Part shown: positions 29,170-40,222 of the stretch, piece by piece
Layout of the letters: each line of letters opens with the position of its first letter
Numbering within the stretch: the first letter of the stretch is position 1
Notes under the pieces: model-generated
The model's database searches: none
What the model was told of the DNA's origin: nothing
Seen by the model: the letters and a program-made list of their open reading frames with translations, nothing else
NCBI GenBank assembly: GCA_903904005.1
Contig: CAIVAR010000170.1
Location: 1 to 64,000, forward strand
Length of the DNA stretch: 64,000 nt
Origin: an uncultured Anaeromyxobacter sp.
GTDB lineage: Bacteria; Myxococcota; Myxococcia; Myxococcales; Anaeromyxobacteraceae
Direction of reading: 5' to 3'
Position numbers and translations under genes: made by a program

Positions 29170-30413
29170 AGGGCGTCCGGCGCGCCTTCGCGGAGCTCGT
29201 CGAGAGCTTCCGGATCGCCTTCGGGGCGCTCGTGGGCGCGCGGCTGCGCACCTTCCTCACCACGCTCGGGATCGTCATCGGCGTCTCCACGGTCATCGCC
29301 ATCGTGGCCATCATCCAGGGTCTCGACCGGAGCTTCGAGGAGCAGATCCAGTTCCTGGGCGCCCACACGCTCTACGTGGACCGCGCCCCGTGGATCCAGA
29401 GCGACGACACCTGGTGGATGTACCGCAACCGGAAGAAGATCACGGTCGAGGAGCTTCGCGCCGTCCAGCGCGAGTCGCAGCTCGCGGTGTCGGTCGCCCC
29501 CATGTCCGGCGTCCGCGGCAAGGTGGCGCGCGGCAACGTCGAGCTGGAGAGCGTGGTCATCCGGGGCACGAGCGAGGAGTACCTGAACGCGAACGGAGGC
29601 TCGGTGCAGGCCGGGCGGTTCCTGGTGGCCGGCGACGTGGAACTGGCGCGGGCGGCGGTGGTGCTCGGCACCGACGTGGTGGACCGGCTCTTCCCCGACG
29701 AGCCCGTCGCCGCGGCGGTGGGGAAGAAGGTGCTCGTGGCCGGGCGTCCGTTCCAGGTGGTGGGGGTGCTCGAGCGGCAGGGGCAGATGCTCGGCATGCC
29801 GCTCGACAACGTGGCCGTCATGCCCTACCCCAGCTTCGGCCGGATCTTCGGGAACCAGCGCAACATGGTGCTCTCGGTGGCCGCCCCGCCCGGGAAGGTG
29901 GCGGAGCTGGAGAGCGAGCTCACCCCCATCCTGCGCAAGGCCCGGCACGTCCTGCCGGGCAAGCCCGACGACTTCGCCTTCAACCGGCAGGAGCAGTTCC
30001 TCAAGCTCTACAAGCAGCTCACCGGCGCCCTCTACGGCATGGCCATCGGCGTGGGGCTCATCACCCTCATCGTGGGCGGCATCGGGATCATGAACATCAT
30101 GCTGGTCTCGGTCCACGAGCGCACGCGGGAGATCGGCGTGCGCCGGGCGCTGGGGGCGCGGCGCAGCACCATCCTCATGCAGTTCCTCATCGAGTCGGCG
30201 GCGGTGGCGGCCCTGGGTGGGGCGCTGGGCACCGCGGTCGGGCTCGGGGTGGCGCAGCTCGTGGCGCTGCTCTCGCCGCTCGCCGCGGCGGCCACGCCGT
30301 CGGCCATCGTCTTCGGCATCGCCTTCTCCACGGCGACCGGGCTCATCTTCGGCATCTGGCCCGCCTGGCGTGCCGCCAACCTCGATCCGGTGGAGGCGCT
30401 GCGCTACGAATGA
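29166..30413 (+). CDS. MacB/FtsX-type ABC permease 1
   Basis: A 415-residue permease with the MacB plan: one N-terminal helix ([24 protein letters not shown]), a large periplasmic domain of about 220 residues, and three C-terminal helices containing the FtsX signature [36 protein letters not shown] start 29166 overlaps the ATPase stop. The periplasmic domain is shorter and different from that of the second permease, suggesting a heterodimer. Confidence 0.9.
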
Positions 30414-31639
30414 GGGGCTTCCTCGACAACCTGGGGCTCGCCTTCGGCACGCTGAAGGGCAACCCGCTGCGGTCGCTGCTCACCCTGCTCGGCATCGTGA
30501 TCGGCGCCGCCACGGTGGTGGGCATGATGGCGCTCGTCGAGGGCTTCCGCATCAGCGTGAACAAGGACCTGGAGGGGCTGGGGGCCGGGGCCTTCCAGGT
30601 GCAGAAGTGGCCGGCCACCTTCGGCCACGTCGACCGGGCCAAGTACGCCAAGCGGCCGGACCTGACCCGGGAGCAGGGGGAGGCGCTGCGCTCGCTGCCC
30701 CACGTGGGCCACGTCTCCATCGAGGCCTACCACAACGGCCGCCCCGAGCGCGTCGCCACCCGCGACCGCGCCACCAAGCCCAACATCCAGATCGTCGGCG
30801 GACTGCCCGACTACCAGTACGCGAACGCCATCACGGTGGCCGACGGCCGCTTCTTCACCGACACCGACATCGCCGTGGGCGGACGGGTCGCGGTGGTGGG
30901 CGCCGACGTCGCCGACGTGCTCTTCCCCGGGGAGAGCGCGGTCGGCAAGGAGATCCGGATCCGGTCGAGCCCCTTCACGGTGGTGGGCGTGGCCGAGCGG
31001 CGGGGCAGCACGCTGGGGGGCAGCCAGGACGGCTGGGTGGTCATCCCCCTCGACCCGTTCTACCAGGTCACCGGGAAGGTCACGAACCACAACATCGCCA
31101 TCCAGGCCACGACGCCCGACGACTTCAACAAGGCCCAGGACGAGGTCATCGCCCGGCTTCGCGGCCTGCGGGGCCTGCGCGGGATCCAGGAGAACAACTT
31201 CGACATCTACAGCAACGAGACCCTCACCGGGACCTTCAACCAGTTCGCCGCGGTGGTCGCGGCGGCCACCTTCGCGGTGACGCTGCTCGCCCTCGTGGTG
31301 GGCGGCATCGGGGTCATGAACATCATGCTGGTCTCGGTGGCGGAGCGGACCCGCGAGATCGGGGTCCGCATGGCGCTCGGCGCCCGGCGCCGCCGCATCC
31401 TCTCCCAGTTCATCATCGAGGCGGTCACCCTGTCCTTGCTGGGCGGCCTGCTCGGCGTGCTGCTCGGCGCCGGCGGCGCCGTCATGGCCCGCGAGGTCTG
31501 GGCCATTCCGTCGAGCGTCCCGGCCTGGGCGGTGCTACTCTCCCTGCTCTCGGCATCGGGGGCCGGCGTCGTCTTCGGCATCTACCCCGCCATCCGCGCC
31601 AGTCGTCTCGACCCGGTCGAGGCCATGCGGACGGAGTGA
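30410..31639 (+). CDS. MacB/FtsX-type ABC permease 2
   Basis: A 409-residue paralogue of permease 1, with helix 1 [24 protein letters not shown], a periplasmic domain and the signature [35 protein letters not shown]. It overlaps permease 1 by 4 bp (ATGA). With one ATPase and two permeases this is probably an asymmetric (heterodimeric) MacAB-TolC-like exporter of unknown cargo, which could be a lipid, peptide or siderophore-like molecule. lepB follows 21 bp later but may have its own promoter. Confidence 0.9.
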
Positions 31640-31660
31640 GGGAAAGGGCCGTCCGACACC

Positions 31661-32350
31661 GTGGACAAGGCGAAGGTCAAGCGCGAGATCAAGGGCTGGA
31701 CGATCACCATCCTGGCCGTCCTGGCGTTCCGGACGCTGCTCTACGAGGCGGTCTACATCCCCTCGGGATCGATGATCCCCACCCTGCAGATCGGCGACTA
31801 CGTGGTGGTCGAGAAGTGGGCCTACGGCGTCCGGCTTCCGTTCACCGATCGTGCACAGGTGATGTGGTCCTCGCCGGCGCGGGGCGACATCGTGGTGCTC
31901 CTCGCACCCCCGGGCAACCCGCGCAACGACGACCTCATCAAGCGGGTGGTGGGGATCGCGGGTGACACCGTCGAGGTCAAGAACGGCGCACTCTGGCTGA
32001 ACGGCAAGCCGGTGCCGCGGCGCCCGCTGCCGGGCCCCTGCACCTACGAGAACCGTCTCGAGGGCGGCCCCTGGCGCACCGAGCGTTGCGCCGCGGCCGA
32101 GGAGCAGCTCGACCGGCACACCTACCTCACCTACTGCACCCCGAACGTGGAGTGCGGGGACGTTCCGCCCACCGTGGTGCCGCCCGGGACGGTGTTCCTC
32201 GTGGGTGACCACCGGGACCACAGCGCCGACAGCCGGGTCTTCGGGCCAGTGCCGGTGGATCGCGTCAAGGGGCGGGCGTGGAACGCGCTCTTCTCCTGGG
32301 GTCCGGGCGGGATCCGGACCGACCGCGTCGCGCATTCCGTCAATCACTGA
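31661..32350 (+). CDS. lepB: Signal peptidase I
   Basis: Inner-membrane Ser/Lys protease that removes signal peptides. 229 residues: one N-terminal anchor (WTITILAVLAFRTLLYEAVYIP), the catalytic Ser37 in PSGSMIPT, Lys94 in DDLIKRVVG, and box E GDHRDHSADSRVFGPVP. There is an insertion between the Lys and box E (GPCTYENRLEGGPW...TPNVECGD) with four Cys, perhaps two disulfides. The start is GTG 31661. The gene ends 45 bp before the first repeat of the accessory island. Confidence 0.93.
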   Translation: MDKAKVKREIKGWTITILAVLAFRTLLYEAVYIPSGSMIPTLQIGDYVVVEKWAYGVRLPFTDRAQVMWSSPARGDIVVLLAPPGNPRNDDLIKRVVGIAGDTVEVKNGALWLNGKPVPRRPLPGPCTYENRLEGGPWRTERCAAAEEQLDRHTYLTYCTPNVECGDVPPTVVPPGTVFLVGDHRDHSADSRVFGPVPVDRVKGRAWNALFSWGPGGIRTDRVAHSVNH

Positions 32351-32395
32351 GGCGTCGCGCGGAGCCCTACGTCGTGCCGGCGGTTCCGGATGGTG

Positions 32396-32622
32396 GGCGT
32401 CGCGGGATCCTTCCGTGATGCCGGCGGTTCCGGATGGCCCGCGTCGCTGGGGGGCGCCCGCTTCGAGGCGAGGCCGTTCGCGGCCGACTGGCGCCGAAGA
32501 ACAGCGCGACTCGAATGGAGGCGGTTCGGCGCCCTCTCAGATGCGCCCCGCGCCGGGGCCACCCGGCCCGCCTGGAGCACTGGCGGGCCCCGCGACTCGC
32601 GGTGCATTCGACGGCGTCCGCG
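32396..32622 (+). repeat. Island repeat R1, intact copy (at least 227 bp)
   Basis: Bases 32396-32574 match the complement of 35544-35722 without gaps over 179 bp; I count about 26 differences, roughly 85% identity. Bases 32572-32622 match the complement of 34028-34078 (9 differences in 51). R1 is therefore the uninterrupted form of a repeat that the IS splits at the other end of the island. It contains a strong palindrome (GCCCCGCGCCGGGGC near 32542) that could stop transcription. The block GCCGGCGGTTCCGGATGG is also duplicated just outside, at about 32375 and 32419. I see no convincing gene in 32351-32637. Confidence 0.85.
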
Positions 32623-32637
32623 TGACGGCGCGCACCC

Positions 32638-33396
32638 TCAGCGGCGGCCGCGGACCGCCAGCGCCCGCGCGGGAAGCCGGAACGGCCCGGCGGGGGAACC
32701 GAGCAGTTCGAAGCAGGCGTCGCGGATCTGGTCCCGTCGCCGGGCGTCCTGCCGGAGCAGGTAGGCGGTGGTGGGCCCGCCCCCGGTCGTGAACGGCTCC
32801 CAGAAGTCGCCGAAGTTCGCGTATCCCACCTCGACGTCGATGGTCCCGCCCTCGACATCCTTGAACCCGGCGCCGGTCCACAGCGTGGCGAGTTCTCCCT
32901 CGCGCCGGAGAGGGAGGCGCGCGTCGTCCGGCGCTTCAGGGTCGAACCGGGATGCGCTCCTCCAGAAGGTCTGCACGAGGGCAAAGCCGTCCGCGGCCCA
33001 GGTGCAGGCCGCAACGCACCCTCCCGGACGGACGACGCGGGAGGCTTCCGCTGCGGCGCGCGGCGCGTCCGACACGAAGGAGAGGACGAGCTGGGAAAGC
33101 GCTCCCCCGAAGCTCCCGGAGTCGAACGGAAGGGACTCGGCCGTCCCGACCCGGACGTCGGCGCCTGGCGTACGGAGGCGGCAGGCCTCGACGAACGGCA
33201 CCGTCGGATCGATGGCGGCGACCTGGCCCGCCCCGAATCGCGCGGCCAGGACCTCCGTCAGGAAGCCGGGGCCGCAGCCCACGTCGAGCACCGGGCCTTC
33301 CACGACGCCGGAGAACTGGAGGAAGCGCGGCGCGAGGAGGCGCGAGTACCGCCCGATGAAGCGGTCGTATCCGTCGGCAGCCACGGCGAAGGTCAT
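32638..33396 (-). CDS. Class I SAM-dependent methyltransferase
   Basis: A 252-residue Methyltransf_11-type enzyme. ATG 33396 (MTFAVAADGYDRFIGRYSR) was chosen over longer starts because homology-like sequence begins there. Motif I is VLDVGCGPGFLTEVLA, the acidic residue of motif II is in AAIDPTVPF, and motif IV is LSQLVLSF. The substrate is unknown; small-molecule acceptors are usual. It lies between inverted repeat copies, apart from the flanking lepB and ptsN loci, so it may be a mobile cargo gene. Confidence 0.83.
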   Translation of the reverse strand: MTFAVAADGYDRFIGRYSRLLAPRFLQFSGVVEGPVLDVGCGPGFLTEVLAARFGAGQVAAIDPTVPFVEACRLRTPGADVRVGTAESLPFDSGSFGGALSQLVLSFVSDAPRAAAEASRVVRPGGCVAACTWAADGFALVQTFWRSASRFDPEAPDDARLPLRREGELATLWTGAGFKDVEGGTIDVEVGYANFGDFWEPFTTGGGPTTAYLLRQDARRRDQIRDACFELLGSPAGPFRLPARALAVRGRR

Positions 33397-33559
33397 GCCG
33401 CCGATATGTCCCGCCAGTGGGGTCGGGGCAACCCCCGGGTGTCGGTGTAGGGCGACCTCGCAGGGTGGTGCCGGATGTAGCGGCTTCCTTCGGGTCAGCC
33501 CTCCGTTCCCGTCCCCCGTCACCCCGGACGCGATACGGATCTTGTCAGGAGGTCAACCC

Positions 33560-33793
33560 ATGTACCGACAGCCGCCGGAGCTGGAAAGCGACCCAGGACG
33601 TTCGGGACTCCTCGAGACGATCACGGCCCGTTTCGCCGCGGAGGATGCGGCGCGCGCCGCCTGGCTGGACGCGCGCATCCACGAGCTGCGGGGGCGTGCC
33701 GCCTGTTCCTGCTGCGGCCTCAAGAGCGGTCATCACCCAAGGTGTACTCGCCGCAACCCGGAAGGGGACGAGGGCGAGGGCGAGACGCACTGA
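33560..33793 (+). CDS. Small Cys/His-rich protein (77 residues)
   Basis: A short gene with the best ribosome site of the island (AGGAGG at 33547-33552, 7 bases before the ATG). The protein has a helical N-terminal part (LLETITARFAAEDAARAAWLDARIHELRG) and a C-terminal cluster CSCCGLKSGHHPRC that could bind zinc. It is divergent from the methyltransferase across a 160-bp gap. No family is recognised. Confidence 0.55.
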   Translation: MYRQPPELESDPGRSGLLETITARFAAEDAARAAWLDARIHELRGRAACSCCGLKSGHHPRCTRRNPEGDEGEGETH

Positions 33794-34027
33794 CGGTGAC
33801 GGGCGCCGTATCGCGGATCGCCTTCGGGCCAGCGGGCAGTCTGCCGCCGGCACCGGGCCGCCCCTCCTCCGCTCCGTTGTCCTCGCGGCCGTCTGGATTC
33901 GTTTTGCAGGACCGGCGGAGTGGGCTGCTGCGGAGACTTCGCTCGGAGTGGCGCCCGCGCCGGCTGACGATGATCCGGGCCGAAGGCGACGCGAGCGGCG
34001 CGCTTCGGGGGGGGCCGGCTCGCCAGC
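33794..34027. other. Intergenic stretch without a gene
   Basis: Very GC-rich and free of a frame with plausible composition or ribosome site. Together with the repeat fragment and the left end of the IS it makes a 378-bp gap between coding regions. Confidence 0.5.
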
Positions 34028-34078
34028 CGCGGGTGCCTTCGTCTGGATCGCGAGTCGCGGGGCCCGCCCGTGCGCCAG
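34028..34078 (-). repeat. Island repeat, inner fragment left of the IS (R3)
   Basis: These 51 bp match the complement of 32572-32622, including an unbroken 21-base block, and the match stops exactly at CCAG (34075-34078), where the IS begins. The complementary part of the repeat resumes at 35544. Confidence 0.75.
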
Positions 34079-34083
34079 ACAGA

Positions 34084-34095
34084 ATGGTTGGACCC
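34084..34095 (+). repeat. Left subterminal inverted repeat of the IS
   Basis: ATGGTTGGACCC, five bases inside the left end. It pairs at 11 of 12 bases with 35530-35541 and perfectly with 34162-34173, which covers the first two bases of the recombinase start codon. Confidence 0.85.
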
Positions 34096-34173
34096 ACGCA
34101 TACGCGATCGTGGGTTACTCCGCAGAGGGGAACTCCACGGCGCAGAGCCACAGCGGAAGGCGGGTCCAACCAT
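34084..34173 (+). promoter_or_regulatory. Structured leader over the recombinase start codon
   Basis: A perfect 12-bp stem (34084-34095 with 34162-34173) would bury the AU of the start codon and enclose the GGAAGG ribosome site. Bases 34092-34098 and 34109-34115 (ACCCACG/CGTGGGT) form an alternative hairpin that competes for the same left arm, so two mutually exclusive folds are possible. Transcripts entering from outside would carry the stem. A circle-junction transcript would start within or just after the left arm. Confidence 0.55.
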
Positions 34174-35266
34174 GGAAAACGTACGATTCGTCGGACTGGA
34201 TGTCCACGCAGATAGCATCGCCATCGCGGTCGCAGAGCCGGGGCGGGGTGAGCCGGGGCAGTTGGCGGTCATTGCGAACGACACGGCATTGCTGCTGAAG
34301 CGGCTGCGGCGGCTTGGGCAGGTGAAGTGCTGCTACGAGGCGGGACCGACCGGATTCGGCTTGCAGCGTGCGCTGACGGCGGAGGGGATCGACTGCGTGG
34401 TGGTCGCGCCGTCGCTCGTGCCGACGCGGTCGGGGGACCACGTGAAGACCGATCGACGGGACGCGGCGAGGCTGGCGCGCTTTCTCCGGTCGGGTGACCT
34501 CACCGAGATCTATGTGCCAGATGTAGCCACCGAGGCGATGCGTGACCTGGAGCGTGCACGCGAGGATGCCAAGAAGGCGCAGACGGTGGCCCGGCACCAG
34601 CTCGGGAAGTTCCTGCTCCGCCACGGCCGCCGCTACGACGGCAAGACCGCCTGGACGGTGAAGCACTTCAAGTGGATCCACGCGCAGCACTTCGAGCAGG
34701 AGGCCCAGAACCGAGTCCTCGAGGACTATGTGCGGACAGTCCAGGACCAGACGGAACGGGTGGACCGGCTGACGAAGAGGATCTTGGAACTCGTCGAGAC
34801 CTGGAGCCTGCGGCCCCTGGTGAAGGCGCTGCAGGCACTGCGAGGCATCCGCGTCATCTCGGCCGTGGTCCTGGCGGCCGAACTGGGCGACCTCACACGA
34901 TTCGAGAGCGCTCCCAAGCTGATGGGCTACCTCGGCCTGGTGCCGTCGGAACACTCCAGCGGGGAGGGCCGGAAGCTTGGGCGCATCACGCGAGCGGGCA
35001 ACGGCCACGCCCGCCGCATCCTGGTGGAGGCGGCCTGGGCATACCGATTCCGCCCGCGGCAGAGTCGGGCAATCATCCTGCGAAGCGCGGGAGTGCCGCA
35101 GGAGGTTCGGCGCATCGCCTGGCGTGCGCAGGAGCGCCTCTGCGCCAAGTACCAGAAGCTCACGGCGCGCGGAAAGAACAAGAACAAGACGATGGCAGCC
35201 GTCGCGAGGGAACTCGCCGGCTTCGTCTGGGCGATCGCCCGGGAACCGACCTTGCTCGCGCACTGA
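34172..35266 (+). CDS. IS110 family recombinase (transposase)
   Basis: A 364-residue enzyme with the two-domain plan of the family. The RuvC-like DEDD N-domain begins VRFVGLDVHADSIAIAV (first Asp), continues with CCYEAGPTGFGLQ (Glu) and KTDRRDAARLARFL (Asp pair). A coiled-coil linker follows at about 150-235. The C-terminal Tnp_20 domain has LRGIRVISAVVLAAELGDLTRF and LVPSEHSSG...GRITRAGNGHARRIL, containing the conserved Ser nucleophile region. The start ATG 34172 is embedded in a 12-bp stem. The longer frame back to 34070 lies in IS-end and host DNA. Confidence 0.95.
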   Translation: MENVRFVGLDVHADSIAIAVAEPGRGEPGQLAVIANDTALLLKRLRRLGQVKCCYEAGPTGFGLQRALTAEGIDCVVVAPSLVPTRSGDHVKTDRRDAARLARFLRSGDLTEIYVPDVATEAMRDLERAREDAKKAQTVARHQLGKFLLRHGRRYDGKTAWTVKHFKWIHAQHFEQEAQNRVLEDYVRTVQDQTERVDRLTKRILELVETWSLRPLVKALQALRGIRVISAVVLAAELGDLTRFESAPKLMGYLGLVPSEHSSGEGRKLGRITRAGNGHARRILVEAAWAYRFRPRQSRAIILRSAGVPQEVRRIAWRAQERLCAKYQKLTARGKNKNKTMAAVARELAGFVWAIAREPTLLAH

Positions 35267-35529
35267 AAGGAGGAGGATTCGGATGGTCAAGGCGGCGGAC
35301 GAGCGGGCCCGGCCAAAGGGGAATCCTCGCCCCGCCTATGAGCAGGTCCAACCGGCCCACGCTCGCCGCCAGACAGAGGCAGCCCCCGACGGATTCAGGT
35401 CATGCGGTAACCAACCCGCGAATATCAGGCTGATCCGCCGTCGCTTAGAGTTCCGCCTCGTCCGTCGCCTTGGCCACCCGAGACCAAAAGCAACGAAGCC
35501 GACCCCGCGAACGGTGCCGGCCTGTTGAC
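35267..35529 (+). ncRNA. Candidate bridge/seek guide RNA region of the IS (3' noncoding end)
   Basis: The noncoding end downstream of the recombinase gene carries two short copies of the insertion junctions: CGCCAGACAGA at 35367-35377 equals the left junction 34073-34083, and ATATCAGGC at 35422-35430 equals the right junction 35540-35548. An 8-bp inverted repeat (GAGGATTC 35273-35280, GAATCCTC 35321-35328) could form the 5' stem. IS110/IS1111 elements are known to encode a guide RNA in a noncoding end. RNA ends and fold are not determined here. Confidence 0.55.
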
Positions 35530-35541
35530 GGGTTCAACCAT
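35530..35541 (-). repeat. Right subterminal inverted repeat of the IS
   Basis: GGGTTCAACCAT, two bases inside the right end; it is the complement of the left repeat with one mismatch. TTGACG at 35525-35530 overlaps its first base and would serve as the -35 of a circle-junction promoter. Confidence 0.8.
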
Positions 35542-35543
35542 AT

Positions 35544-35722
35544 CAGGCGGGCCGGGTGGCCCCGGCGCGGGGCGCATCTGAGCGGGCGCCGACCCACGTC
35601 ATCCCGGATCTCGCTGTCCGGCGGCGCCAGTCGGCCGCGGACTCCCGCTCCGCGAAGCCGGCGCCCCCCAGCGACGCGGGCCATCCGGACCCGCCGGCAC
35701 CACGGCAGGACCCGGCGACGCC
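35544..35722 (-). repeat. Island repeat, outer part right of the IS (R2)
   Basis: 179 bp, the complement of 32396-32574 at about 85% identity without gaps. It ends two bases from the stop codon of ptsN. With 34028-34078 it makes up one repeat copy interrupted by the IS. Confidence 0.88.
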
Positions 35723-35724
35723 GC

Positions 35725-36189
35725 CTACGGCCGCGCGTCCTCGTCGACGACCAGTTGACGCATCGCCGCGGCGTCCGGCGCCTCCAGCAGCGCCCTGCGA
35801 AATTCGGGGCGCTTGAGGAGCCGGCTCACGCGGGCCAGCGCCTGCAGGTGCTCGGCCCCGGCGCGCTCCGGGGCGAAGAGGGCCACGAAGATCCGTGTGG
35901 GCTTCCCGTCGTGCGCCCGGAAGTCCACCCCGTCGCGGCTGCGCCCCAGCGCCGCGGCCAGGCCCGGCAGCCCGGGTACCTTGCAGTGGGGCACCGCGAC
36001 GCCGTCACCGACCCCCGTCGACCCCAGCTTCTCCCGGGCCAGGAGACCCGCCGAGAGCGCCGCCGCCTCGACGCCGGTAGCGCCGGCCACCGGCCTCGCC
36101 AGCTCGGCGAGGACCGACGCGACGGTGCCGCCGGAGAGGTCGTCGATCACGCAGTCGGGGCGGAGGATGTCGGCGAGGCGCACCACCAC
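35725..36189 (-). CDS. ptsN: PTS IIA-like nitrogen-regulatory protein
   Basis: A 154-residue cytoplasmic EIIA(Ntr) domain. The phosphorylatable His68 lies in GDGVAVPHCKV, and the family order (LSAGLLAREKLGSTGVGDGVAVPH...THIFVALFAPE-like...HLQALARVSRLL) is normal. It relays phosphate state to potassium, nitrogen or stress control. The start is one of three consecutive GTG codons (36184-36189 and the next one inward). It is the last gene of the rpoN-hpf-ptsN series, a conserved order in many proteobacteria. Confidence 0.9.
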   Translation of the reverse strand: MVVRLADILRPDCVIDDLSGGTVASVLAELARPVAGATGVEAAALSAGLLAREKLGSTGVGDGVAVPHCKVPGLPGLAAALGRSRDGVDFRAHDGKPTRIFVALFAPERAGAEHLQALARVSRLLKRPEFRRALLEAPDAAAMRQLVVDEDARP

Positions 36190-36242
36190 CGGCTAGCATG
36201 GCCGCCCGCGCGATTCAAGGAACGCGGGCGGCCTGCCGGGTC

Positions 36243-36791
36243 CTACGAGGGGCGGGCCTCGATGACGCCCAGCTTCCCGTCGTCGCGCCGGTAGACCACG
36301 TTGATGGCGTGGCTCTTCGTCTCCTGGAAGACGTAGAAGCGGCTGTTCAGGAGGTCCATCTGCACGATGGCCTCGTCGAGCGACATGGGCTTGGCCTGGA
36401 ACTTCGAGGTCGAGACCACGCGGGACGAGGGGGCCTCGGACTGCTCCTCGTGGATCTCGTGGCGGATGTCGACCGGGATCCAGTCCTTGGGGATGAGGGT
36501 CGCCTTGTGGTCGCGGACCCGCTCCTTGTGCTTCTTCAGCTGCCGCTCGATCTTGTCGGCGGCCGCGTCGATCGAGGCGTACATGTCGTCCGACTTGCCC
36601 CGGCCCCGCACCGAGAAGGCCCCGGCCTTCATGGTGATCTCGGCGTGGTGGGAGAGGTTCTCCACGTGGAGCACGACGTGGGCCTCGCCCGGCCGGTCCA
36701 CGAAGCGCTGGATGTGGTCGACCTTCGCCTTCACGTGTTCCTTCAGTGCTTCGGTGGGCTCGAGGTGGCGGAACGTGATGTTCACCTGCAT
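36243..36791 (-). CDS. hpf: Ribosome hibernation promoting factor, long form
   Basis: A 182-residue protein that pairs 70S ribosomes in stationary phase. The N-terminal ribosome-binding domain (MQVNITFRHLEPTEALKEHVKAKVDHIQRF...HHAEITMKAGAF) covers residues 1-100. After a linker, the C-terminal dimerisation domain VVSTSKFQAKPMSLDEAIVQMDLLNSRFYVFQ completes the long type. The start ATG 36791 follows AGGAGG. There is a 146-bp gap to rpoN, long enough for its own promoter; 53 bp separate it from ptsN. Confidence 0.94.
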   Translation of the reverse strand: MQVNITFRHLEPTEALKEHVKAKVDHIQRFVDRPGEAHVVLHVENLSHHAEITMKAGAFSVRGRGKSDDMYASIDAAADKIERQLKKHKERVRDHKATLIPKDWIPVDIRHEIHEEQSEAPSSRVVSTSKFQAKPMSLDEAIVQMDLLNSRFYVFQETKSHAINVVYRRDDGKLGVIEARPS

Positions 36792-36937
36792 CGTGTCCTC
36801 CTGGGTGCGGCGCGGGATGCGAAAATGAATCGGCCGCGGCGCTCCGGAATCCTCCTCGCGGAGGCAACCGGCACGACCACGGCCAACGAACTGCATGTCG
36901 CTCGAAGCGTCACGAGTTCCACCGTCATCATAGCAGA

Positions 36938-38437
36938 TCAGAAGAACTTCTTCCGCTTCGAGCTGGGGAGAATGCCCAGCACTTCTCGATACTTGGCAAC
37001 GGTCCGGCGTGCGATCTCGATGTTCTGCCCCTTCAGGAGTTCCACGATCTTCTGGTCGGAGTGGGGGCGCTTCGGGTCCTCCGCTGCCACGATCTGCTTG
37101 ATGTGGTTCTTCACCGCCTCGCTGGCGATCTCGTCGCCGCCGGTGCGGGCGATGGCCGAGTTGAAGAAGAACTTGAGCTCGTAGATCCCCTGCGGCGTGT
37201 GCACGTACTTGTTGGTGGTGACGCGCGACACCGTCGACTCGTGCATCCCGATGTCCTCGGCCACGTCGCGGAGGATGAGGGGCTTCAGATAGGCGATGCC
37301 CTTGTCGAAGAAGTCCTTCTGGAACTTCACGATCGATTCGGTGACCTTGTAGATGGTGCGCTGCCGCTGGTGGATCGAGCGGATGAGCCACACGGCGCTG
37401 CGCAGCTTGTCCTGGATGTACTCCTTGGCGGCGCCGGCGCTCCCGTTCTTCAGCGCCTGGCGGTACATGCCCGAGATGCGCAGCTTGGACAGGCCGTCGT
37501 CGTTCAGCACCACCACGTAGCGGTCGCCGACCTTCTGCACGTGCACGTCGGGGGTGATGTACTGCGCCTCCTCGCTCGTGTAGGCGCGCCCCGGCTTGGG
37601 CTCGAAGGCAGCGATCACCTTCACCGCCTTCACCACCTGCTCGATGGGGATCTTGAGGTCGCGGGCGATGGCCGCGTAGTTCTTCGACTCGAGGTGCTTC
37701 AGGTGGCGCTCGACGATGGCCACCACCTCGGGCAGGTCGGCGTTCAGGTGGCGGGCCTGGAGCAGCAGGCACTCCCGCAGGTCCCGGGCGGCCACGCCCG
37801 GCGGGTCGAGCGACTGCACCTTCTTCAGGACCTTCTCGGCGAACTCGATGCCCACACCGGCCTCGAAGGCCACGCGGACGAGCGGGTCGCGCACCGCCGA
37901 GTCGTCGTCCTCCCCCTCCACCGCCGGCATGCGGAAGTACCCGTCGGCATCGAGGTTCCCGATGATGAGCATGGCCACCTGCTCCTCCTCGGGCGTGAAG
38001 GCGGAGAGGCGCATCTGCCAGACCAGGTGGTCGCCCAGGTCGCCCTTGCGGGTGAGGCTGGCCTCGTAGCCAGGCAGGTCCTCGTCCCCCAGGTTCTTGT
38101 TGGAGGGGGCGGTGTGGCCCTGCAGCTGGTAGTGCTCGAGGTACTGGTCCCAGTCGATCTCGTTGGACCCTTCCTCGCCCTTCACCTCCTCCGACTTCTC
38201 GGGCTCCTTGGGCGCCGGCTCCAGCCGCTCCAGGCTGGCCTCGGCGGGGCTCGCCCCCTCGGCGCGCTCGTCCTCCTCCGGGGCCTCGTCGAGCAGCGGG
38301 TTCTCGTTGATCTCGGTGCGGATGAGGTCGACCAGCTCGAGGCGGGAGAGCTGGAGGAGCTTGATGGCCTGCTGCAGCTGGGGCGTCATCACCAGCTGCT
38401 GCGTCATCTTGAGGTGCTGGCGCAGCTCGAGACTCAT
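36938..38437 (-). CDS. rpoN: RNA polymerase sigma-54 factor
   Basis: A 499-residue sigma-54. Region I is the Gln/Leu-rich start ([35 protein letters not shown]), followed by an acidic region II (about 50-105). The core-binding domain holds [18 protein letters not shown], the HTH is [21 protein letters not shown], and the RpoN box [10 protein letters not shown] is near residue 475. ATG 38437 overlaps the lptB stop by 4 bp, so rpoN is translationally tied to LPS export. Confidence 0.97.
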
Positions 38438-39192
38438 GGGCGCACCTCGTGGCGGGGCTCGTCGTCGAGCCGGAACTTCTCCCCCAGGTAGACGGCGCGC
38501 GCGCGCGGGCTCGCGGCGATGTGGGCGGGCGTCCCCTCCTCGAGGATGCACCCGGCGGAGAGGATGTAGGCGCGATCGCAGATGCCGAGCGCCTCGCGCA
38601 CGGCGTGGTCGGTGAGGAGCACGCCGATGCCGCGGGTCCGCAGGGAGCCGATGAGCCGCTGCAGCTCCCCCACGGCGATGGGATCGACCCCGGCGAAGGG
38701 CTCGTCGAAGAGGATGAAGCGCGGGTCGTTGAGCAGGCTGCGCGCCACCTCGGCGCGGCGCCGCTCGCCCCCGGAGAGCTGCTCCCCCAGGCTGGCCTCC
38801 ACGGTGCGCAGGTGGAACTCGTCGAGCAGCTCGTCGGCCCGCCGCTCCCGCTCGACGCGCCCCTTGCCGAGCGCCTCGAGGACGGCGGTGAAGTTCTGAC
38901 GGACGGTGAGCTTGCGGAAGATCGAGGCCTCCTGGGGCAGGTAGCCGACCCCGCGCCGGGCCCGCAGGTGCATGGGCAACCGGGTCAGGTCCTCGTCGCC
39001 GAGCCGCACCGTGCCGGCGTCGGGACGGACGAGCCCCACCACCATGTTGAAGCTGGTGGTCTTGCCGGCCCCGTTCGGGCCGAGGAGCCCCACCACCTCG
39101 CCCGGGGCGACCCGGAAGGAGACCCCGTCGACGACCCGGCGGCTCCGGTAGCTCTTCACGAGCCCCTCCGCCTGAAGGACGCGCGCACTCAC
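38434..39192 (-). CDS. lptB: LPS export ABC transporter ATPase
   Basis: A 252-residue ATPase of the Lpt machine that extracts LPS from the inner membrane. Walker [11 protein letters not shown]-loop [13 protein letters not shown] (the LptB-specific form), signature [15 protein letters not shown], Walker [14 protein letters not shown] and His in LTDHAVRE are all present. It overlaps lptA upstream and rpoN downstream by 4 bp each. The LptF/G permeases are outside this window. Confidence 0.96.
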
Positions 39193-39656
39193 TTGCCGGG
39201 CTCCTTCCTTCGCGGTCCGGGGAGCTCCTGCCCGGGCTGCGGGACGATGGTTCCCTTGGCCGAGGTCAGCGTGGCCCGGTCCTCGGCGAGGTCGTAGGCG
39301 AGCACGTCGCCCTTCATCACGCTCTCGCCGTCCTGGAGGATCGGGTTGCCGGTGCAGGTGACCCGGGCCGTCTTCTCCTCGTAGATGGCCGTCTCGCAGG
39401 TGACGGTGCGCGGGCCGCGGGTGAGCTTCACGTCGCCCGTGCAGACGGCGCGGCGGATCTTCCCGGCGGCGTCGTTCTCGGCGACGAGCCTGCGGCAGGT
39501 GAGGGTCGCGTCCTCGCGGGTGAGGGTCACGAGCGGCTTCCCCGTGAAGACGACCTTGCCCTCCTTGTAGAGGTACTGGACCTCCTCGGCGACCACCGTC
39601 ACCGGAGGTGAAGGGGGCGCGGCGGCGAGGACCAGGGCGAGGCAGGCGCCGATCAC
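39189..39656 (-). CDS. lptA: LptA/OstA-like LPS bridge protein
   Basis: A 155-residue periplasmic protein with a short signal peptide ([18 protein letters not shown]). The beta-jellyroll repeats of the OstA domain are visible ([60 protein letters not shown]). Three Cys in the domain could form a disulfide. It sits between lptC and lptB with 4-bp overlaps on both sides, the standard lptCAB order. Confidence 0.9.
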
Positions 39657-40222
39657 GGGGCAGCCCCCCCTGCCACCAGGCGGACGCCGCCCCGGATCTC
39701 CACGTTGCCGGAGGTGGGGTCGGCGGTGAAGGCCGGGCCGGCCAGCCGGTAGCCAGGGCCCGTCACCTCGACGGGCTCGTCGCCGCGGACCACGCCGTCG
39801 GCCTCGGCCCAGCGCGCCGAAGGGGTCCGGGCGGTCGCGTCACCGCGGGTGAGAACGACCCCCCCGCGCGCCTTCCAGGTCCGGGTCCCGAGGTCGCCCT
39901 CGAGTTCCGGCGCGGAGACGGCCAGGTCGGGAACGCCGGGGCGGGGCACGGTGGCGTGCGCCCCCGCTGCCACCACCTCCCCGGAGTCCTTCCGGTAGGT
40001 GGCGCGGTCGGCGGTGCCCGAGGCCCGGAGCTCGGGGCCTCTCCAGGCACGGAACGCCACGCGCTCCAGGGTCACCTCGGGCGGCGGGGGTCGGGCGGGG
40101 GGCTCACCCCCGGTGCAGCCGCCGAGGAGGAGAATTGACGCCGAACAAGCGCCCAGGGCCCGCGCCGTGGGGCGCGACCTCGTCCGTTGGTGGCTTTTGG
40201 CACGAAAGTTCAAGTGGCACAA
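39653..40222 (-). CDS. lptC: LptC-like LPS export protein
   Basis: About 189 residues. The N-terminal hydrophobic stretch ends in a lipobox-like LGGC ([12 protein letters not shown]), so this LptC may be a lipoprotein rather than a single-pass membrane protein. The mature part contains a jellyroll ([53 protein letters not shown]) as in LptC/YrbK. Start codons available are TTG 40222 or TTG 40213; there is an in-frame stop just upstream and no ATG or GTG before the signal peptide. It overlaps lptA by 4 bp. Confidence 0.8.

What the first reader, a model, noticed from the sequence alone, without database searches (positions are those of the whole stretch)
35267..35548. The IS 3' noncoding end carries copies of both insertion junctions: a candidate bridge/seek guide RNA
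CGCCAGACAGA (35367-35377) is identical to the left junction 34073-34083, and ATATCAGGC (35422-35430) is identical to the right junction 35540-35548. Each copy spans host flank, CAG and IS end. Chance matches of 11 and 9 bases at exactly these junctions in 277 bp are unlikely. IS110/IS1111 elements are known to encode a guide RNA that pairs with target and donor. Oddly, both matches are plus-strand hybrids of flank and IS end; published models expect one guide per loop to be complementary. CCCGCCT (35331-35337) is a weaker candidate for a complementary right-flank guide.
Basis: partly seen in the sequence, partly recalled or inferred. Interest (0 to 1): 0.72.

Follow-up and report, generated by a model that had tools for sequence, protein, structure and literature searches.

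The report
Guide RNA of a jumping element

Summary
Confirmed and explained. Window 34079-35546 is a 1,468-bp IS110/IS1111-type insertion sequence inserted in a dispersed genomic repeat. Uninterrupted copies of that repeat elsewhere in the genome give the empty site GCGCCAG|GCGGG. The 3' non-coding end holds a bridge/seek RNA (about 35318-35443) with a target-binding and a donor-binding loop. Its helices show compensatory changes across 33 relatives. The guides are RTG CCCGCCT (35331-35337), LTG CGCCAG (35367-35372), a weakly defined RDG (35393-35401) and LDG ATATCAG (35422-35428). Across 66 related elements, with ends called without using the RNA, the guides covary with the flanks and IS ends (z 15.6, 9.0 and 9.4; wrong-flank controls null). 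This held in 20 hold-out elements for the two target guides, and in phylogenetically independent pairs. The order, RTG before LTG, is the published IS1111 order. The base after LDG tracks the first target base past the core (10:0 independent pairs, p=0.001), as expected of a mirror image of IS621 'handshake' guides; the corresponding LTG-side signal is inconclusive. New member of a known kind, with one possibly new mechanistic detail.

The parts
34079..35546 (+). the insertion sequence (1,468 bp, taking the CAG overlap at the right end)
   Evidence: ends from uninterrupted repeat copies in the same genome and sub-terminal inverted repeats
34084..34095 (+). left sub-terminal inverted repeat ATGGTTGGACCC
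   Evidence: pairs with 35530-35541; inverted-repeat scoring
35530..35541 (+). right sub-terminal inverted repeat GGGTTCAACCAT
34172..35266 (+). IS110-family DEDD recombinase, 364 aa
   Evidence: PF01548, PF02371; NF033542 246 bits vs cut-off 140; D10/E56/D94/D97 contexts and GLVPSEHSSG motif; similar in sequence to ISCro4 9t56 and IS621 8wt6
34061..34078 (+). left half of the target repeat, ending in core CAG
35547..35600 (+). right half of the target repeat, GCGGGCCGGGTGG...
35318..35443 (+). bridge/seek RNA core with two loops (transcript ends not known)
   Evidence: MFE fold; RNAalifold consensus; 97.3% standard pairs, 10 pairs with double changes, covariation score 0.263 vs 0.092 shuffled
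35318..35328 (+). helix P1 5' strand GGGG-AAT-CCTC (pairs with 35376-35386)
35331..35337 (+). right target guide (RTG) CCCGCCT; pairs with top strand AGGCGGG of the right junction
   Evidence: covaries with right flank: 235 vs 105 expected, z 15.6; positions +1 to +4 each p<0.001 in independent pairs
35340..35364 (+). helix P2 GAGC/GCTC and its variable hairpin
   Evidence: 4 of 4 P2 pairs have double changes
35367..35372 (+). left target guide (LTG) CGCCAG; identical to the left flank top strand, so pairs with the bottom strand
   Evidence: covaries with left flank, z 9.0; position -2: 17 independent pairs with, 1 against
35373..35374 (+). AC just past the LTG core, identical to the first bases of the IS (34079-34080); putative target-loop handshake bases
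   Evidence: 61/66 and 45/66 vs 47.8 and 33.4 expected, but only 2 independent pairs with and 2 against at +1: inconclusive
35376..35386 (+). helix P1 3' strand GAGG-CAG-CCCC
35387..35443 (+). donor-binding half: helix P3 (35388-35391 with 35439-35442), helix P4 (35404-35407 with 35416-35419)
35393..35401 (+). right donor guide (RDG) candidate ATTC..GTC, complementary to GAAT (34082-34085) and GAC (34078-34080) of the left IS end, discontiguous
   Evidence: 35399 with LE+2: 57/66 vs 40.3; overall complementarity 486 vs 467, z about 2.5: weak
35422..35428 (+). left donor guide (LDG) ATATCAG, identical to the right IS end 35540-35546
   Evidence: covaries with the right IS end, 340 vs 260, z 9.4; 5 independent pairs with, 0 against at -2
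35429..35429 (+). G just past the LDG core, equal to the first target base past the core (35547); putative donor-loop handshake base
   Evidence: 40/66 vs 22.3; hold-out 13/19 vs 8.6, p=0.0018; 10:0 independent pairs, p=0.001

Best explanation
The 3' non-coding end of this IS1111-type element is the gene of its bridge/seek RNA. SHOWN by sequence and comparison: the RNA forms two internal loops. In the target loop, RTG (35331-35337) is complementary to the top strand right of the insertion point and LTG (35367-35372) to the bottom strand left of it; both include the CAG/AG core. In the donor loop, LDG (35422-35428) reads the right IS end the same way, and a discontiguous RDG probably reads the left IS end. 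Across relatives, target guides change together with target flanks, and the left donor guide with the right IS end. INFERRED from IS621, ISEc11 and relatives: the RNA binds the DEDD recombinase, brings the circular donor junction (RE-core-LE) and the target together, and directs cleavage and exchange at the core without target duplication. INFERRED and new for this group (about 0.5): the bases just 3' of the LTG and LDG cores are handshake guides that pair with the partner DNA after strand exchange.
For: DEDD recombinase with both Pfam domains; sub-terminal inverted repeats and long 3' non-coding end, as in IS1111. Uninterrupted target copies. Conserved RNA with compensatory helices in 33 relatives. 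Guide-flank covariation in 66 elements, controls null; all-against-all scan puts the guide pairings at the top; RTG and LTG replicated in 20 hold-out elements; phylogenetically independent pairs. Guide order matches PMC11187229. One-base donor-loop handshake; IS621 handshake geometry: PMC11208158.
Against: No expression or biochemical data. Folding energy alone is not unusual (z -0.11). No Rfam match. RDG pairing is weak and discontiguous. LDG could not be re-tested in the hold-out set, where it barely varies. LTG-side handshake is not supported by independent pairs (2:2) and the second handshake base in the donor loop shows nothing. Only one copy of this IS in its genome, so its own flanks cannot be compared between insertions.
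Confidence: 0.94

Rival explanations
1. The junction copies are relics: the IS captured flank sequence from an earlier site, or short matches arose by chance, with no guide function.
For: The 9-base match alone occurs in 1.5% of shuffles and CCCGCCT in 6%.
Against: The two guide positions vary together with the flanks in dozens of elements and in independent pairs, and the RNA structure around them is conserved with compensatory changes.
Confidence: 0.02
2. The base after LDG tracks the target not because it pairs with exchanged target DNA but because it pairs inside the RNA with the RTG base that reads the same target position.
For: LDG+1 is complementary to RTG+1 whenever both agree with the flank; in 11 elements whose RTG+1 mismatches the flank, LDG+1 follows RTG five times and the flank twice.
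Against: A guide tuned to the preferred target would give the same pattern; IS621 has an experimentally tested handshake base at the mirror-image position.
Confidence: 0.2
3. The extension of both matches past the core is coincidence: conserved RNA bases (TAGAC) happen to equal conserved IS-end bases (AGACA), with no pairing role.
For: LTG+1 shows 2 independent pairs with and 2 against; LTG+2 only ties when pairs differ in the RNA, because the IS end hardly varies.
Against: Elements whose IS end begins TC mostly carry TC in the RNA (7 TC/TC, 1 TG/TC); LDG+1 is 10:0.
Confidence: 0.3

Closest known systems
IS1111-family seekRNAs (ISEc11, ISPa11, ISKpn4, ISPst6; PMC11187229)
   Same: Downstream non-coding region, sub-terminal inverted repeats, DEDD recombinase, top-strand match located 5' of the bottom-strand match, target matches overlapping at the insertion point.
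   Different: Different target (a GC-rich dispersed repeat); donor guides and a donor-loop base that follows the target are described here, which the sections of that paper read here do not discuss; no experiment here.
IS621 bridge RNA (IS110 group; PMC11208160, PMC11208158)
   Same: Two internal loops reading target and donor, core included in the guides, discontiguous RDG, handshake bases next to the core.
   Different: RNA lies in the right end, guide order within each loop is reversed, and the putative handshake bases follow LTG/LDG instead of RTG/RDG.
attC-targeting IS1111 elements
   Same: Several relatives with the same RNA architecture sit in attC-like sites (L024 most clearly; also L018, L022); judged by eye.
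   Different: The window element's guides point to a dispersed repeat (GCGCCAG|GCGGG).

Membership tests
IS110/IS1111 superfamily | DEDD (RuvC-like) recombinase with Transposase_20 C-terminal domain and SG motif | tested here: met
   PF01548 and PF02371, NF033542, GLVPSEHSSG at residues 255-264
IS1111 family | sub-terminal inverted repeats of 7-17 bp | tested here: met
   ATGGTTGGACCC / GGGTTCAACCAT, 11 of 12 complementary
IS1111 family | long non-coding region downstream of the recombinase gene | tested here: met
   93 bp upstream versus 280 bp downstream
IS1111 family | site-specific insertion without target duplication | tested here: met
   empty sites in the same genome differ only by the shared CAG core
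IS1111 seekRNA | RNA with top-strand match (RTG) 5' of bottom-strand match (LTG) | tested here: met
   RTG 35331-35337, LTG 35367-35372; covariation; order stated in PMC11187229
bridge RNA | donor-binding loop with LDG and RDG | tested here: met
   LDG strongly; RDG only weakly
bridge/seek RNA | RNA is made and bound by the recombinase | not testable with these tools
   needs RNA sequencing of the purified complex
bridge RNA handshake guides | bases beside the core that pair with the non-cognate DNA after exchange | tested here: inconclusive
   donor-loop base supported (10:0 independent pairs); target-loop base not resolved (2:2)

The most novel reading that the evidence does not exclude
In IS1111-type elements the handshake guides sit at the 3' ends of LTG and LDG, the mirror image of IS621. 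In RNA-centred terms the two groups would then use one geometry, with the DNA duplex flipped, and the bottom strand (relative to the recombinase gene) would be exchanged first.
Probability: 0.45. Interest if true: 0.6.

Novelty: new member of a known kind. Interest (0 to 1): 0.42.

Why it matters
It adds a large, well-resolved set of IS1111-type guide RNAs (86 elements with called ends) whose targets and guides can be read side by side. It also gives a testable rule for which bases matter beyond the guides themselves when such recombinases are reprogrammed, and a prediction of which DNA strand is exchanged first in IS1111.

Tried and rejected
Rfam scan of 30000-40000: nothing. Single-sequence folding energy: not unusual. 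Viral-contig scan with the protein alone: nothing; scans with RNA motifs found relatives in a viral collection. Protein alignment failed because a relative's gene carries a stop. Considered that both full junction-spanning matches are guides: rejected beyond the first base or two past the core. Considered that the RNA copies each new junction: rejected, since identical elements lie in different flanks. The 11-base guide-defined target occurs 34 times in the genome against 20 for the reversed control, so the guide alone does not single out one site. Relatives with unresolved ends (for example L017, L027, L081, L113, L134), L143 and L165, and repeat copies of one element, were left out of the statistics. 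All-against-all covariation values below about z 6 are largely shared ancestry and were not interpreted.

Full report
THE OBSERVATION. The sequences and coordinates given are exact. In 3,000 dinucleotide shuffles of the non-coding region, an 11-base match across the left junction never arose and a 9-base match across the right junction arose in 1.5%. The junctions are real. A search of the window's own genome finds one copy of the IS but at least 12 dispersed copies of the sequence on its right side, and several of these continue directly into the left flank with a shared CAG. Uninterrupted copies read GTGCGCCAGGCGG(G/T)CC. The IS is therefore 34079-35546, inserted at CAG in a GC-rich repeat, without duplication.

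THE ELEMENT. The gene at 34172-35266 encodes an IS110-family DEDD recombinase. It is similar in sequence to the solved ISCro4 and IS621 recombinases. Sub-terminal inverted repeats, a short 5' and a long 3' non-coding region place it in the IS1111 type as defined in PMC11187229.

THE RNA. The region 35318-35443 is conserved far beyond the recombinase's close relatives. Fetched relatives come from bacterial genomes labelled Solirubrobacteraceae, Desulfobacterales, Gammaproteobacteria, Elusimicrobia, Gemmatimonadetes and Acidobacteria, from plasmids and from a viral-contig collection. RNAalifold on 33 sequences gives two stem-loop units, each with an internal loop. For the named helices, 97.3% of cells pair, 10 of 20 pairs show double changes, and the covariation score is 0.263 against 0.092 in shuffles and at most 0.083 for slid structures.

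THE GUIDES. IS ends were called only from inverted repeats; guides were read from alignment columns. In 66 distinct elements (59 to 66 usable per test) the RTG matches the right flank at 235 positions against 105 expected (z 15.6), LTG the left flank at 205 against 138 (z 9.0), and LDG the right IS end at 340 against 260 (z 9.4). LTG against the right flank and RTG against the left flank give z -1.5 and -1.2. A scan of all RNA columns against all flank and end positions, both senses, puts the guide pairings at the top. Twenty later-fetched elements reproduce the two target guides; LDG hardly varies among them and could not be re-tested. With phylogenetically independent pairs on a recombinase tree, RTG +1 to +4 and LTG -1 to -3 hold, and LDG -2 and -3 at p about 0.03. 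A clean example is L015 and L016, two close relatives: one has core AG with RTG core CT, the other core AA with RTG core TT. L010, the nearest relative by recombinase (79% identity), keeps the donor loop almost unchanged and differs in both target guides.

THE ODDITY. Published IS1111 seekRNAs have the top-strand match 5' of the bottom-strand match (PMC11187229). The window has the same order: RTG CCCGCCT first, then LTG CGCCAG. What remains is their continuation past the core: AC(AGA) after LTG equals the start of the IS, and GC after LDG equals the right flank. In IS621 the bases just past the core at the 3' end of RTG and RDG are handshake guides that pair with the partner DNA after top-strand exchange (PMC11208158). 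Because the guides of each loop are in the opposite order in IS1111, the mirror-image position is just 3' of LTG and LDG: exactly there. The donor-loop base follows the first target base past the core in 40 of 66 elements (22.3 expected), in 13 of 19 hold-out elements (8.6 expected, p 0.0018), and in 10 independent pairs against 0 (p 0.001), while six control pairings are null. Further bases show nothing. On the LTG side the IS end varies too little (2 pairs with, 2 against). The handshake reading is therefore supported for one base, plausible for its partner, and not proved. Pairing of LDG+1 with RTG inside the RNA would give a similar signal.

MECHANISM. Shown: guide-flank covariation, RNA structure, insertion at a core without duplication. 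Inferred by homology: RNA binding by the recombinase, synapsis of circular donor and target, exchange at the core. Inferred here: handshake bases on the LTG/LDG side and hence bottom-strand-first exchange.

NOVELTY. A new element of a known kind. No paper found in the held library describes handshake bases in IS1111, but that library is incomplete and ISfinder could not be consulted.

Noticed in passing
window 32447-32600 (minus) and 34050-34078 / 35544-35660: A GC-rich dispersed repeat of very roughly 200 bp, at least 12 copies in the genome in both orientations; a second, uninterrupted copy lies about 1.5 kb upstream of the IS in inverted orientation. It resembles a REP/BIME-type repeat; its nature was not worked out.
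   Followed up: partly
L024, L022, L018 (right flanks AACGCCC..., AACGCCT..., AACGCAT...): Relatives with the same RNA architecture sit in attC-like sites, with RTG core TT instead of CT to match the AA core of the target.
   Followed up: partly
L036, L042 donor loop: In one alphaproteobacterial subgroup the donor loop holds a 9-base stretch AACATACGG exactly complementary to the left IS end, a much longer RDG than in the window element.
   Followed up: partly
L077, L078, L079, L082: Near-identical copies of one relative sit in four different contigs of a viral collection, all with AAG|GCAGT at the left junction.
   Followed up: no
window 35725-38551 (minus): The IS lies just downstream of a PTS IIA-like gene, followed upstream by genes resembling a ribosome hibernation factor and RpoN (sigma-54); names judged from translations, not searched.
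   Followed up: no
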